The notes under the pieces were generated by a model that searched no databases, was not told the origin of the DNA, and was given only the letters and a program-made list of their open reading frames with translations. From contig JAIVJJ010000010.1 of assembly GCA_020200095.1 (NCBI GenBank), positions 1 through 40,579 on the forward strand: a stretch of 40,579 bases of DNA, written 5' to 3'. This DNA comes from Acidobacteriota bacterium. Its GTDB lineage: Bacteria; Acidobacteriota; Blastocatellia; Pyrinomonadales; Pyrinomonadaceae. Shown here one piece after another: positions 17,570 through 21,955 of the stretch (the first letter of the stretch is position 1; the number at the start of each line of letters is the position of its first letter). A program made the translations under genes and the position numbers.

Positions 17570-20338
17570 GTGCCGCGAAAAGCAAACGTCAAAATCGGGC
17601 AAAGTCGAAGCCGCAGATTCTTCGGGCGGTTTTTTCGGCTGGCGCAAGTTTTAATTTTGTGCGCCGCTCCGCTTTTCGCCGAGCGTCTGCCGGTAAAAAC
17701 CTACACGGTTGCTGATGGTTTGCTGCGCGACGGTGTTCATAAAATTCGGCAGGATTCGCGCGGCTTTTTGTGGATTTGCACCGGAGAAGGCGTCTCGCGG
17801 TTTGACGGTGCCGGAATTACAAATTTCACTGTCGCCGACGGTCTGCCCAACCGCTTCGTCTATGATTTTCTCGAAACCCGCAACGGCGCAATTTACATTG
17901 CCACCGGAAAAGGCTTGGCGCGGCTTAATCCGCACGGGCTTCGAGGTTCGAAAGAAAATCCCCTTTTCACGGTCTTTCTGCCGGACAATCCGAAGGCGGA
18001 AAGAATACAAAATTTGTTCGAGGACAAAAACGGACAGGTTTGGGTCGGGACAAGCGACGGGCTTTATAAATTGATTGAAAACGGCGTGCAGAAGACCGCG
18101 TTTGAATCCGTCGCTCTGGACAAATCGAAATATGAAACGCTTGCCATCGGCGATATTATCGAAGACCGGCGCGGAACGCTCTGGGTTGGCACATCGAACG
18201 ATTTGTTTCGTATCTCGCCGGACGGCGCTGTGCTGCGGCGTTTGACGCTTGCCGACGGATTATCGGGCAACATCGTCATTTCGCTGCTCGAAGACCGTGA
18301 CGGACAGATTTGGGCAGGCTTTTACAACACCGGCGGTTTGTGCCTGCTCGACGCGGAAACGGTTGAAGTCAAAAAATGCTTTTCGGGAAAAGACGGGCTG
18401 CCAGCTTTGTGGATGGGTTCGGGATGCGGGGCGAAAAAAATCGCTCGCTATGGTTTTACGACTTACAGCGAAGAAGACGGGCTGGATTTCGCTTATACCA
18501 GCTCGACTTTTGAAAACCGCGCCGGTGAATTGTTCGTAACTACAACTTTCGGGGACCGGCGCAAAATCAGCCGTTTTGACGGCGACAAATTTTTAACGGT
18601 CGAACCGCGTCTTTCGGAAGCGGTAAATTATCTCGGCTGGGGCTGGCAGCAGACCGTCTGGCAGGACAGCACGGGCGCTTGGTGGATTCCGACGGGACAG
18701 GGAGTTTTCCGAACCGCGCCAACGAGCTTTGAAAATCTCGCTCGCACGGCGGCTGAAAGGCAGCCTTTCGGTGGGAAGGAAAAAGAAGTTTTTCGCCTTT
18801 TTGAAGATTCGCGCGGCGACATCTGGATTGCAAGAGCAAACAGTGAGATTTGGCGTTGGGAACGCGCCGCGAATGTTTGGCATGATTACACGGCGCAAGC
18901 CCGTCTTGCGCCTGACCGCCTTGTTTCGGCTTTTGTCGAAGACCGCGACGGCAGCGTTTGGATTGGCACGGGAAGCGACGACAGCGTTGGTTACTACGAA
19001 GGCTTGTTGATTCGATACCGCGACGGCGAATTTCGCCGCTTCACAGAAAAAGAAGGAGCGCCGTGCGGCTGGATGCGGGATTTGTTTTTAGACAGCCGCG
19101 GAAGACTCTGGATTGCCAGCACTGAAGACGGATTGTTCAGACTCGATGACACGAACGCGGATGATTTGAATTTCTTTCGCTACACGTCCCCCAACGGATT
19201 GACCAGCAACGCAACCGCCTCAGTGACGGAAGACCAGTACGGACGGATTTACACGGGGACGTGGCGCGGGATTGACCGCATAACACCCGAAACCGGACAA
19301 ATCGAGAACTTCACGACCGCCGACGGTTTGCCCGGAAGTTTTATCGAAACGGCTTACCGCGACCGCCGCAACAATCTCTGGTTTGCCACAAGGAAAGGTT
19401 TAGCGCAGTTTCAGCCTGAACCCTTGCGGCAGAGAAAGCCGCCGACTGTTTTAATCATGGGTTTGCGCGTCGAAGGCGAGCCGCAGGCGGTTTCGATTTT
19501 GGGCGAAACGGAAATTCCTCGCCTTGAATTAAATTCCGACCAAAATCAAATCGGCGTTGATTTTCTCGGCTTGGGCGCTTCCTTGGGCGAAAAATTAAAA
19601 TACGAATACCGGCTCGGAGATTCTGCCGATTGGACGCCGACGACGGAAAGAACTTTGAATTTCGCCAATCTCGCGCCGGGCGAATATCGTTTTGAAGTTC
19701 GCGCCGCGTCCGCCGACAAAATTTACAGCGCACCGGCTTTGCTGCAATTCAAAATCGCCGTTCCCGTCTGGCAGCAGTGGTGGTTCGTCGCGCTGGTCGC
19801 GCTGGTCGCGGGCTTGACGATTTACTTTTTTTACCGCAATCGCGTCGCGCAGCTTCTGGAAATCGAGCGTACCCGAACGCGCATAGCGACTGATTTGCAC
19901 GACGACATCGGCACGAATTTATCGAAGATTTCACTGCTCAGCGAAATCGTCAACTTGCAGCTCGCCGACGGAAACGCCAAAAACAAACAAATGCTCGCTT
20001 CGATTGCCGAAATCTCGCGCGAGTCTGTCGCCTCGATGTCGGATATTATCTGGGCAATCAATCCGCACCGCGATTCGACGGACGAATTGACGAGCCGGAT
20101 GCGCGAACACGCCGAAGAAATCTTTCTCGAAAAAGGCGTGCAGGTTCGTTTCAACGCTCCGCCGGACGGCGGGCAAATCAAACTTCCGGACGGGCGCGGC
20201 TTCGACGTTTCGCAAAAGCGCGAGGGAAACGGCTTGGAAAATATGAAACGCCGCGCCGCGATGAATCGCGGAAGATTTGCAGTCGAGTCAAAAATCGGCG
20301 GCGGAACGACGGTAGAAATTGAATTTCCGCAACATTAA
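17570..20338 (+). CDS. Reg_prop/Y_Y_Y sensor histidine kinase with damaged ATPase domain
   Basis: The gene starts at GTG 17570 (GGAG upstream) and encodes 922 residues. A signal/anchor segment is followed by a periplasmic two-component-regulator propeller with repeated DGL..I.EDRxGxLWxGT blades. Then come a Y_Y_Y domain (about 650-730), one transmembrane helix (WWFVALVALVAGLTIYFFY, about 738-756), and a HisKA_3 dimerisation domain with the phosphoacceptor His777 in TDLHDDIGTNL. The HATPase part is incomplete: NAPPDGGQIKLP is followed directly by DGRGFD (residue 874). The N-box segment (EAVNNxxRHS in relatives, about 55-65 residues) is absent although the frame is kept. GNGLENMKRRA and the GGGTTVEIEF end are present. 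A second in-frame loss is suspected in the propeller at LPALWMGSGCG (about 18410). Without the N-box, ATP/Mg binding and autophosphorylation should fail, unless the loss is an assembly error. Confidence 0.85.
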   Translation: MPRKANVKIGQSRSRRFFGRFFRLAQVLILCAAPLFAERLPVKTYTVADGLLRDGVHKIRQDSRGFLWICTGEGVSRFDGAGITNFTVADGLPNRFVYDFLETRNGAIYIATGKGLARLNPHGLRGSKENPLFTVFLPDNPKAERIQNLFEDKNGQVWVGTSDGLYKLIENGVQKTAFESVALDKSKYETLAIGDIIEDRRGTLWVGTSNDLFRISPDGAVLRRLTLADGLSGNIVISLLEDRDGQIWAGFYNTGGLCLLDAETVEVKKCFSGKDGLPALWMGSGCGAKKIARYGFTTYSEEDGLDFAYTSSTFENRAGELFVTTTFGDRRKISRFDGDKFLTVEPRLSEAVNYLGWGWQQTVWQDSTGAWWIPTGQGVFRTAPTSFENLARTAAERQPFGGKEKEVFRLFEDSRGDIWIARANSEIWRWERAANVWHDYTAQARLAPDRLVSAFVEDRDGSVWIGTGSDDSVGYYEGLLIRYRDGEFRRFTEKEGAPCGWMRDLFLDSRGRLWIASTEDGLFRLDDTNADDLNFFRYTSPNGLTSNATASVTEDQYGRIYTGTWRGIDRITPETGQIENFTTADGLPGSFIETAYRDRRNNLWFATRKGLAQFQPEPLRQRKPPTVLIMGLRVEGEPQAVSILGETEIPRLELNSDQNQIGVDFLGLGASLGEKLKYEYRLGDSADWTPTTERTLNFANLAPGEYRFEVRAASADKIYSAPALLQFKIAVPVWQQWWFVALVALVAGLTIYFFYRNRVAQLLEIERTRTRIATDLHDDIGTNLSKISLLSEIVNLQLADGNAKNKQMLASIAEISRESVASMSDIIWAINPHRDSTDELTSRMREHAEEIFLEKGVQVRFNAPPDGGQIKLPDGRGFDVSQKREGNGLENMKRRAAMNRGRFAVESKIGGGTTVEIEFPQH

Positions 20339-20381
20339 TGCTTTTTGCCGGAAGCGCAAGTGTCTTGCCTGTGCTCCTAGC

Positions 20382-20397
20382 CTACCGAAATACGTAG
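20382..20397. promoter_or_regulatory. CTACC-N6-GGTAG-type operator upstream of the regulator gene
   Basis: CTACCGAAATACGTAG, an imperfect inverted repeat (one mismatch) between the kinase and response-regulator genes. It matches the perfect site at 21147-21162 at most positions (CCTACCGA..TA.GTAG). Confidence 0.6.
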
Positions 20398-20434
20398 GAC
20401 ACAAAAAACGCGCGATGGTTTATTGTTATTGAAA

Positions 20435-21103
20435 ATGCTCCAAACAGTCGAAAATCCGGTGAAAACCAAAAAAATCCGAGTCGTCGTCATTGAAGACGAG
20501 CGAGAATTGCGTAGCGGTCTGCAAACTTTATTAAATCTCACGCCGAATTTTCGCTGCGAAAAATGTTTCGGTTCGATGGAGGACGCGCTTCAAAGCCCGG
20601 AGACGGGCGCGGCGGATTTGGTCTTGACCGACATTGGGCTGCCGCGTTTGAGCGGCATCGAAGGCACGCGAATTCTGCGTCAGGAGTTTCCTGAACTCCC
20701 GATTGTCGTGCTGACGGTTCACGGCGAAGACGACAAAATTTTTCAAGCCCTCTGCGCTGGAGCGAACGGTTATCTCTTGAAAAACACGCCGCCCGGGAAA
20801 ATTATCGAAGCTCTGACCGAAGTTCTCGACGGCGGCGCGCCGATGTCGCCGTCGGTCGCCCGCCGCGTCGTTCATATTTTCCGCACGTTCAACCCGCCCG
20901 CCGAAGCCGAATGTCGTCTGACTGAACAGGAAAAAAAGATTCTGAAAATGCTGGTGGACGGTCATCATTACAAAACCGCCGCTTTTGAACTCGGCATCTC
21001 GGTCAACACGATTTCCTTTCACCTGAAAAACATTTATCACAAACTCTGCGTCCACTCGAAAACCGAAGCGGTCGCCAAAGCGTTGCGCGAAAGATTGGTT
21101 TAA
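20435..21103 (+). CDS. NarL/FixJ-type (LuxR) response regulator
   Basis: ATG 20435 gives 222 residues; TTG 20423 would add four. The receiver domain has the acidic pocket IEDE (20-23), the phosphoacceptor Asp66 in VLTDIGLP, Thr94 (VVLTVHG) and Lys116 (YLLKNTPP), all the residues expected of an active receiver. The C-terminal LuxR helix-turn-helix runs from LTEQEKKILKMLVDG through AAFELGISVNTISFHLKNIYHKL to VAKALRERL. It follows its cognate kinase by 96 bases. The partial palindrome at 20382-20397 in that gap, and the matching one before the collagen-like gene, are candidate binding sites, which would mean autoregulation plus control of the collagen-like gene. That link is inferred. Confidence 0.88.
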   Translation: MLQTVENPVKTKKIRVVVIEDERELRSGLQTLLNLTPNFRCEKCFGSMEDALQSPETGAADLVLTDIGLPRLSGIEGTRILRQEFPELPIVVLTVHGEDDKIFQALCAGANGYLLKNTPPGKIIEALTEVLDGGAPMSPSVARRVVHIFRTFNPPAEAECRLTEQEKKILKMLVDGHHYKTAAFELGISVNTISFHLKNIYHKLCVHSKTEAVAKALRERLV

Positions 21104-21146
21104 CAGCGAAGCCAAAGCAAACTTCTCAAAAATATTTTTCCCCAAC

Positions 21147-21162
21147 CTACCGATTTAGGTAG
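21147..21162. promoter_or_regulatory. CTACC-N6-GGTAG operator before the collagen-like gene
   Basis: CTACCGATTTAGGTAG, a perfect 5-bp inverted repeat with a 6-base spacer. It ends directly against the -35 box at 21163, the position expected of an activator site, and matches the site at 20382-20397. Confidence 0.65.
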
Positions 21163-21192
21163 TTACATTCGCCTGTCCGCTTTTGCTATAAC
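21163..21192 (+). promoter_or_regulatory. Promoter of the collagen-like gene
   Basis: TTACAT (21163-21168), an 18-base spacer, then TATAAC (21187-21192). The weak -35 box adjoining the operator suggests activator dependence. The ribosome binding site AAGGAG lies just before ATG 21251. Confidence 0.55.
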
Positions 21193-21250: not shown

Positions 21251-21955
21251 ATGAAAAAGAATTTTTTACATTCAATCGGAAAATTAGGACTGGGAAGTCT
21301 GTCGGTTCGCCGTCAGCGCGTAATTATTCTTTCGACAATGGCTGTGCTGTTTACGAGCATCATCGCCTTTGCGAGCATTCCCGGACCGAACGGCGTTATT
21401 TCCGGCTGCTATTCGAGAAGCGGCGGCACGCTGCGCGTTATTGACGCTTCGGTGACGCAGTGTAAACAAGGCGAAACTGCAATCAGTTGGAATCAGACCG
21501 GACCGCAAGGTCCACAAGGCATACAAGGTCCTGTTGGTCCCGCCGGACCGCAAGGTCCGCAAGGGATTCAAGGTCCGCAAGGAATACAAGGCGAACAAGG
21601 TCCGCAAGGTCCTGCTGGTCCGCAGGGACCTGCGGGAGCAGGCGGAGTGAAGGCAATGCTATTTGTTCGCGCCGACGGAACGATTGCCAGATGTTACAAC
21701 GGAATAACCAATTCGTCGAGCGGTAATTGTGGGTTTTCCGTAACTATACCTTCGAGTAATTTCGGACGAAGATATATAGTCAATTTCGGTTTTAATACTA
21801 CCGACAAGTTCTTTTCTCTTACATCTTCAGGGATAAGTGATCATATAAACGAAAGAATTTCTTACGTAGATCCAACTGCTGTCGGTGTGCATTTCTGGGA
21901 AACGAACGAAACACTTAATGGCATACCCTCTGATTTTTTCCTGATAGTTTATTGA
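21251..21955 (+). CDS. Secreted collagen-like (Gly-X-Y) repeat protein
   Basis: A 234-residue protein with an N-terminal membrane/export segment (residues about 23-42, [19 protein letters not shown]). A compact cap domain follows ([19 protein letters not shown] ... [12 protein letters not shown]) that in many bacteria precedes a collagen region. Sixteen Gly-X-Y triplets run from residue 84 to about 131 ([16 protein letters not shown] type). A beta-rich C-terminal head contains two cysteines ([27 protein letters not shown]). The collagen part should form a trimeric stalk presenting the head outside the cell, perhaps for adhesion; no ligand can be inferred. The DNA of the repeat is imperfectly repetitive (about 21507-21640). 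The upstream operator shared with the response regulator links it to that system. Confidence 0.88.

What the first reader, a model, noticed from the sequence alone, without database searches (positions are those of the whole stretch)
21147..21192. Candidate operator shared by a response regulator and a collagen-like gene
CTACCGATTTAGGTAG abuts the -35 box of the collagen-like gene, and CTACCGAAATACGTAG lies ahead of the response-regulator gene. Both fit CCTACCGA(A/T)(A/T)TA(C/G)GTAG. The placement at the upstream edge of a weak -35 box is that of a class II activator, so the LuxR-type regulator probably activates the collagen-like gene and itself.
Basis: partly seen in the sequence, partly recalled or inferred. 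Interest (0 to 1): 0.7.

Follow-up and report, generated by a model that had tools for sequence, protein, structure and literature searches.

The report
Matching switch sites beside a regulator
A bacterium's signalling protein very probably switches on both its own gene and the neighbouring gene for a collagen-like protein through matching DNA sites just ahead of the two promoters, an arrangement repeated in dozens of relatives.

Summary
The two sites are real: CTACCGAAATACGTAG (20382-20397) before the response regulator (RR) and CTACCGATTTAGGTAG (21147-21162) before the collagen-like gene. Across RR homologues the conserved element is the dyad CCTRY-N8-RYAG(G/T), followed at fixed distance by a -10 hexamer. 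It lies upstream of the RR in 16 of 22 loci with RR identity of at least 55% (shuffles: mean 0.04) and downstream in 14 of 22 (0.06). A model built from other genera found 7 matches in nine same-genus genomes, all at RR homologues. The two sites of a module resemble each other more than other modules' sites (24 modules). Homologues with Lys for Ser in the recognition helix carry another half-site, GTGR for GTAG (held-out test), tying the site to this RR, though Lys is one clade. A dyad centre near -44 on weak promoters fits class II activation; binding and activation are not shown. This copy's kinase lacks about 44 residues of its ATPase domain. A known kind of circuit, a new member.

The parts
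17570..20338 (+). sensor histidine kinase with two-component propeller (Reg_prop), Y_Y_Y and HisKA_3; lacks about 44 residues with the N-box of the ATPase domain that all 13 compared homologues have
20381..20398 (+). operator 1, CCTACCGAAATACGTAGG, upstream of the response regulator
20398..20403 (+). -35 position of the RR promoter (GACACA, weak; overlaps the last base of the dyad), spacer 17
   Evidence: register; read
20421..20426 (+). -10 of the RR promoter (TATTGT)
20435..21103 (+). response regulator, NarL/FixJ type (Response_reg + GerE), 222 aa; ATG at 20435 is two bases past the predicted start of transcription, so near-leaderless (the first-start ORF begins at TTG 20423)
   Evidence: start is inference from the geometry
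21146..21163 (+). operator 2, CCTACCGATTTAGGTAGT, upstream of the collagen-like gene
21163..21168 (+). -35 position of the collagen-like gene promoter (TTACAT, weak), spacer 18
   Evidence: register
21187..21192 (+). -10 of the collagen-like gene promoter (TATAAC)
21251..21955 (+). collagen-like protein, 234 aa (Collagen triple helix repeat), the presumed target

Best explanation
The two sites are operators of the response regulator encoded between them. A dimer of the NarL/FixJ-type RR reads the two half-sites of the dyad CCTRY-N8-RYAG(G/T) (shown: conserved dyad and covariation; inferred: binding). Bound at about -44, directly against a weak -35, it helps RNA polymerase start (class II activation; inferred from position and weak -35) at its own gene and at the adjacent gene for a secreted protein, here collagen-like. 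The circuit is a local, self-amplifying cassette: kinase, operator, regulator, operator, secreted protein. Each cassette has its own version of the operator, matched to its regulator's recognition helix. In relatives the input is presumably the neighbouring propeller-type kinase; in this genome that kinase lacks the N-box segment, so either another phosphate donor is used, or the input is lost, or the gap is an assembly error.
For: Site conserved at RR homologues: 16 of 22 upstream and 14 of 22 downstream at RR identity >=55%, shuffle means 0.04 and 0.06. Fixed geometry: TAnnnT 41-43 bases into the element in 33 of 45 elements, 25 of 26 upstream ones and 8 of 19 downstream ones. Sequence around the site is unalignable: mean identity of 5' flanks 0.26, none of 820 pairs above 0.6. 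Held-out model R1 (29 sites from other genera): 7 matches at E<=10 in 9 same-genus genomes, all beside RR homologues; in the window its best + strand hits are the two sites (13.5 and 9.3 bits). Exact CCTRYN8RYAGTTACA occurs three times in the own genome, each just past one of three RR paralogues. Same-module sites resemble each other: 10.67 of 16 identical against 9.22 permuted, 24 modules, 0 of 20,000 permutations. Recognition-helix covariation: discovery set Ser 25 of 30 S-type and 0 K-type, Lys 2 of 11 S-type and 8 of 11 K-type; new loci Ser 12 of 23 S-type and 0 K-type, Lys 1 of 10 S-type and 6 of 10 K-type; a dyad search blind to the half-site letters agrees.
Against: No binding or expression data. 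Lys-type regulators form one clade (97/87), so the covariation rests on few events, and other helix positions change with it. Three Lys-type loci carry S-type matches (L152, L168, L220). Of 23 new Ser-type loci 11 have neither strict pattern, many of them in deeper branches. Close loci L133 and L137 show no site next to the RR. A repressor could also bind there. The window's upstream site alone is weak in the held-out model (E 0.084 in the window) and did not reach E 10 genome-wide. The kinase gap makes signal input in this copy doubtful.
Confidence: 0.86

Rival explanations
1. The sites are operators of this RR but it represses: bound against the -35 it blocks RNA polymerase, giving negative autoregulation and repression of the neighbour.
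For: The dyad overlaps the upstream edge of the -35, a place also used by repressors.
Against: The -35 boxes are poor (neither window promoter passes the consensus scan), as expected of activator-dependent promoters; the dyad keeps a rigid distance to the -10, as contact with polymerase would demand, while repressor sites usually tolerate more freedom (general knowledge).
Confidence: 0.12
2. Another, unlinked regulator or an alternative sigma factor reads the element.
For: The element extends into the -35 (GTAGTTACAT), so part of it could be a sigma recognition sequence.
Against: In 9 genus genomes the held-out model finds the element only beside RR homologues; half-site changes go with the RR's recognition helix; the element is a dyad, not an asymmetric sigma site.
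Confidence: 0.04
3. Chance: two similar palindromes in one 40 kb window.
For: Within the window alone, 2 of 100 shuffles reach as many matches; CTACC-N6-GGTAG with 2 mismatches is not above chance (7 against 4.14).
Against: Conservation across dozens of loci with unalignable flanks.
Confidence: 0.01
4. The dyads are RNA elements (terminator or attenuator stems) rather than protein sites.
For: A short stem with an 8-base loop could form.
Against: They lie upstream of the -10 at fixed distance, no terminator-like match lies there, and the 8-base middle varies while the geometry to the -10 does not.
Confidence: 0.01

Closest known systems
NarL/FixJ (LuxR-type HTH) response regulators: NarL, VraR, RcsB
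   Same: Receiver plus GerE HTH; best solved relatives VraR and NarL; dimer on paired half-sites (for RcsB, passages of PMC5829831).
   Different: Half-sites CTAC/GTAG eight bases apart; only family-level similarity (NCBIfam NarL model 113.7 bits, cut-off 250).
Class II activator-dependent bacterial promoters (CRP class II is the textbook case; recalled)
   Same: Site centred near -44 against a weak -35, fixed distance to the -10.
   Different: Activation and polymerase contact are not shown here.
Local-regulation recognition code of the LacI family (PMC2978694, outline and abstract seen)
   Same: Locally acting regulators whose half-site bases follow recognition-helix residues.
   Different: Here a two-component NarL-type family; the clearest change (Ser to Lys, GTAG to GTGR) is one clade, so no convergence is shown.
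UhpA/UhpB-type systems (recalled)
   Same: HisKA_3 kinase and LuxR-type RR adjacent to their target gene; the kinase matches the UhpB model weakly (25.6 bits, cut-off 408).
   Different: The sensor is a propeller (Reg_prop) kinase and the presumed targets are secreted proteins, not a sugar-phosphate transporter.

Membership tests
NarL/FixJ response regulator | Response_reg receiver and GerE/LuxR HTH in one protein | tested here: met
   (80.3 and 54.7 bits, above cut-offs)
NarL/FixJ response regulator | Binds DNA as a phosphorylation-driven dimer on paired half-sites | not testable with these tools
   Only the dyad symmetry of the site is seen
Class II activator-dependent promoter | Activator site abuts or overlaps the -35, centred near -40 to -45 | tested here: met
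   centre about -43.5 and -44.5 in the window
Class II activator-dependent promoter | Poor -35 box | tested here: met
   TTACAT and GACACA; neither window promoter is listed
Class II activator-dependent promoter | Expression depends on the activator | not testable with these tools
   needs reporter or RNA-seq
Locally acting, autoregulated two-component cassette | Operator before the regulator and before the adjacent target, shared within the cassette | tested here: met
Locally acting, autoregulated two-component cassette | Sites confined to the cassette | tested here: met
   7 of 7 matches at RR homologues; 4 of 4 in the own genome (model not held out there)
Locally acting, autoregulated two-component cassette | Intact cognate kinase (full ATPase domain) | tested here: not met
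   N-box segment of about 44 residues absent in this copy, present in 13 of 13 homologues
Family-wide recognition code | Half-site base follows a recognition-helix residue | tested here: met
Family-wide recognition code | The association arose several times independently | tested here: inconclusive
   Lys is one clade; other clades' motifs were seen only afterwards

The most novel reading that the evidence does not exclude
A class of Acidobacteriota carries a large, diversified family of insulated cassettes (propeller kinase, NarL-type regulator, secreted protein), each reading its own operator at about -44, and the operators of the different clades (GTAG with Ser, GTGR with Lys, ACGG with Ala-Phe-His-Met, ATGTGG with Cys, GTGCGC-like with Arg) spell out a recognition code for NarL-type helices.
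Probability: 0.55. Interest if true: 0.66.

Novelty: new member of a known kind. Interest (0 to 1): 0.52.

Why it matters
It gives a statistically tested operator for a common but uncharacterised regulator group in a poorly cultivated phylum, so the genes that each cassette controls can be read from sequence. The natural variety of paired helices and operators makes the rules by which NarL-type regulators choose DNA directly testable.

Tried and rejected
A composite pattern with two mismatches in the own genome was useless: 94 matches against 227 for the reversed control; only the zero-mismatch class was informative. With one mismatch in the genus the reversed control again exceeded the pattern. 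The RNA-stem and chance readings were rejected (see rivals). A tblastn against plasmid records gave only distant regulators. Literature searches brought no paper on these operators; that says only that these searches of an open-access library found none.

Rows dropped: one search lost L177 (no RR on it), leaving 48 of 49 loci. One search dropped 3 of 108 proteins shorter than 195 residues. One search lists 101 of 108 loci (no readable helix, or under 80 bases upstream, dropped); one search's shuffle control used 107. Alignment A2 left out 4 of the 45 elements (L139 downstream, L147 upstream, L152 downstream, L160 downstream). Four partial RR hits were not fetched, nor were the weaker LuxR-type hits beyond those laid automatically. 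L038 and L131 appear to be the same contig (same length and match); only L131 entered the counts. The K-type pattern was drawn by eye from the 11 Lys-type discovery loci before the flanks of the 60 new loci were read.

Full report
What is there. The window carries a kinase gene (17570-20338: two-component propeller, Y_Y_Y, HisKA_3), a response regulator gene (Response_reg and GerE) and a gene for a 234-residue collagen-like protein. Inside the window alone the evidence is thin: 4 matches with up to 3 mismatches, which are the two sites on both strands, against 0.84 expected and reached by 2 of 100 shuffles. The genome is a fragmented, unnamed assembly (464 contigs, 86.6% complete); the closest named relative found is an uncultured acidobacterium, L038, with an RR 74% identical.

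The motif in relatives. RR homologues were collected from the genus, family and class. Among 48 loci, the exact pattern CCTRYN8RYAGK lies within 250 bases upstream of the RR in 16 of 22 loci with RR identity >=55% (1 of 26 below that) and within 400 bases downstream in 14 of 22 (2 of 26 below); shuffle means were 0.04 to 0.09, and the pattern read backwards gave 0 in all four sets. With the shorter CTRYN8RYAGK the figures are 18 of 22, 8 of 26, 14 of 22 and 5 of 26 (read backwards 0, 1, 0 and 3). Fifteen loci of less related LuxR-type regulators gave 0 of 15 with the CCT form, and 0 of 15 upstream and 1 of 15 downstream with the shorter form, on either strand.

Geometry. In the 45 elements that match the shorter pattern, a TAnnnT hexamer starts 41-43 bases into the element in 33 of 45: 25 of 26 upstream elements and 8 of 19 downstream ones; no other single offset between 18 and 83 exceeds 5 of 45. 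Some downstream elements miss the strict hexamer but have a related one there, as the window's TATAAC. The dyad centre thus lies at about -43.5 to -44.5, against the -35. Upstream elements often end RYAGG-TGACA or -CGACA, downstream ones RYAG-TTACAT. The flanks do not align (mean identity 0.26 over 820 pairs), so the element stands out from unrelated sequence.

Specificity. A sequence-only model from 29 elements of other genera (A1, R1) found 7 matches at E<=10 in the nine genomes of the genus, and all 7 lie beside RR homologues; five genomes had none. In the window its two best + strand matches are the two sites. The exact string CCTRYN8RYAGTTACA occurs three times in the own genome, each 20 to 96 bases past one of three RR paralogues on contigs C46, C90 and C260. 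A second model that includes the own sites finds 4 matches at E<=10 in the own genome, all in these cassettes; the window's upstream site is not among them. So the regulon looks local. In some relatives extra copies precede other genes of the same cluster.

Shared operator. In 24 modules with a site on both sides of the RR, the two sites agree at 10.67 of 16 positions against 9.22 after permuting partners; none of 20,000 permutations reached this, and the inner eight bases show it too. This supports the word 'shared' in the finding directly.

Which protein reads it. The recognition helix reads N-T-(I/V)-x-F-H. In the first 48 loci, x = Ser goes with the S-type site (25 of 30; K-type 0), x = Lys with another dyad, CYAC-N8-GTGR, at the same place (8 of 11; S-type 2 of 11); the rest of the 48 were Ala 1 of 2 S-type, Arg 1 of 3, Asn 0 of 1 and one unread with S-type. 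The two patterns were then applied unchanged to 60 new loci: Ser 12 of 23 S-type and 0 K-type; Ala 1 of 5 S-type; Lys 1 of 10 S-type and 6 of 10 K-type; Cys 0 of 3; His 0 of 1; Asn 2 of 4 S-type; Arg 1 of 9 S-type; unread 2 of 5 S-type; K-type 0 in all groups but Lys. A search that does not know the half-site letters, only dyad symmetry plus the -10 distance, finds a good dyad in 36 of 107 upstream regions at score >=13.5 (5 shuffles: 0 to 2) and in 58 at >=12.5 (4 to 8); at >=12.5 the third base of the right half-site is A in 24 and G in 2 Ser-type loci, and A in 2, G in 9 and T in 1 Lys-type loci. In the PDB alignment x faces a Lys of NarL's recognition helix (its number, 188, and its base contact are recalled). 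For RcsB the passages seen say that K180 and S184 contact bases and S183 the backbone (PMC5829831); by my count S183 is position x, so the mapping to a base contact is not settled. Lys-type regulators are one clade in the tree (97/87), so the association counts sequences and not events. Seen afterwards, other clades have their own dyads at the same place: CCGT-N8-ACGG (Ala-Phe-His-Met, 3 loci), CYACAT..ATGYGG (Cys, 3 loci), GCGCATATTTGTGCGC-like (Arg-Asn-Tyr).

Mechanism. Best reading: a dimer of the RR binds the dyad and activates from a class II position its own promoter and that of the next, secreted protein. Shown: the conserved element, its geometry, its restriction to the cassettes, the resemblance within modules, and the covariation. 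Inferred: binding, dimer, activation, and the role of phosphate. Neither window promoter passes a plain sigma-70 scan, which fits activator dependence. The RR's start is probably ATG 20435, two bases past the predicted transcription start.

A complication. Aligned with 13 homologues, the window's kinase lacks about 44 residues around the N-box of the ATPase domain, in frame. If real, this kinase can hardly phosphorylate the RR. I cannot tell a true deletion from an assembly error.

Targets. Genes downstream of the RR encode mostly secreted-looking proteins that differ from cassette to cassette: collagen-like in the window, and among 8 tested others five without a Pfam family at E<=0.001, one DUF5122 propeller, one with Peptidase_S74, and one with a Thiol_cytolysin match (chosen as the longest ORF within 900 bases after the RR, so not always the first gene).

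Novelty. The kind of circuit (autoregulated, locally acting NarL-type regulator at class II sites) is established knowledge; this is a new, well-supported member. The literature searches found nothing on these operators in the library searched. The closest published idea is the LacI recognition code derived from local regulation (PMC2978694, outline and abstract seen).

Noticed in passing
window 20100-20338 (kinase C-terminus): About 44 residues with the N-box of the ATPase domain are missing in frame compared with 13 of 13 homologues: a dead kinase, or an assembly error.
   Followed up: partly
window 20421-20437: The RR message looks near-leaderless: predicted start of transcription 20433, ATG 20435; several homologues show the same closeness of -10 and start codon.
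   Followed up: partly
L209, L231, L239; L212, L229, L237; L252, L254, L257 upstream of the RR: Other clades of the same RR family carry different dyads at the same distance from the -10, hinting at a clade-by-clade recognition code.
   Followed up: partly
L174 7887-9707: In one relative the gene after the downstream operator matches the thiol-activated cytolysin family (86.7 bits).
   Followed up: no
L134, L139, L142, L144, L147 downstream of the RR: Secreted-looking proteins share an N-terminal stretch like FNFQGRLNDGxNPANGxYDLQFRLYD and mostly have no Pfam family.
   Followed up: no
L177 (G007:C81) reverse strand, position 704: A zero-mismatch site of the downstream type on a contig without an RR; the gene after it resembles one found downstream of the RR in L137.
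   Followed up: partly
L174 10980 and 12247; L132 8363; L136 2983 (oriented as): Extra copies of the operator precede further genes of the same cluster, so some cassettes may control several genes.
   Followed up: partly
L152 downstream of the RR and 2.6 kb further: A Lys-type regulator with the same S-type-like dyad twice, 2.6 kb apart, an exception to the Ser/Lys rule.
   Followed up: no
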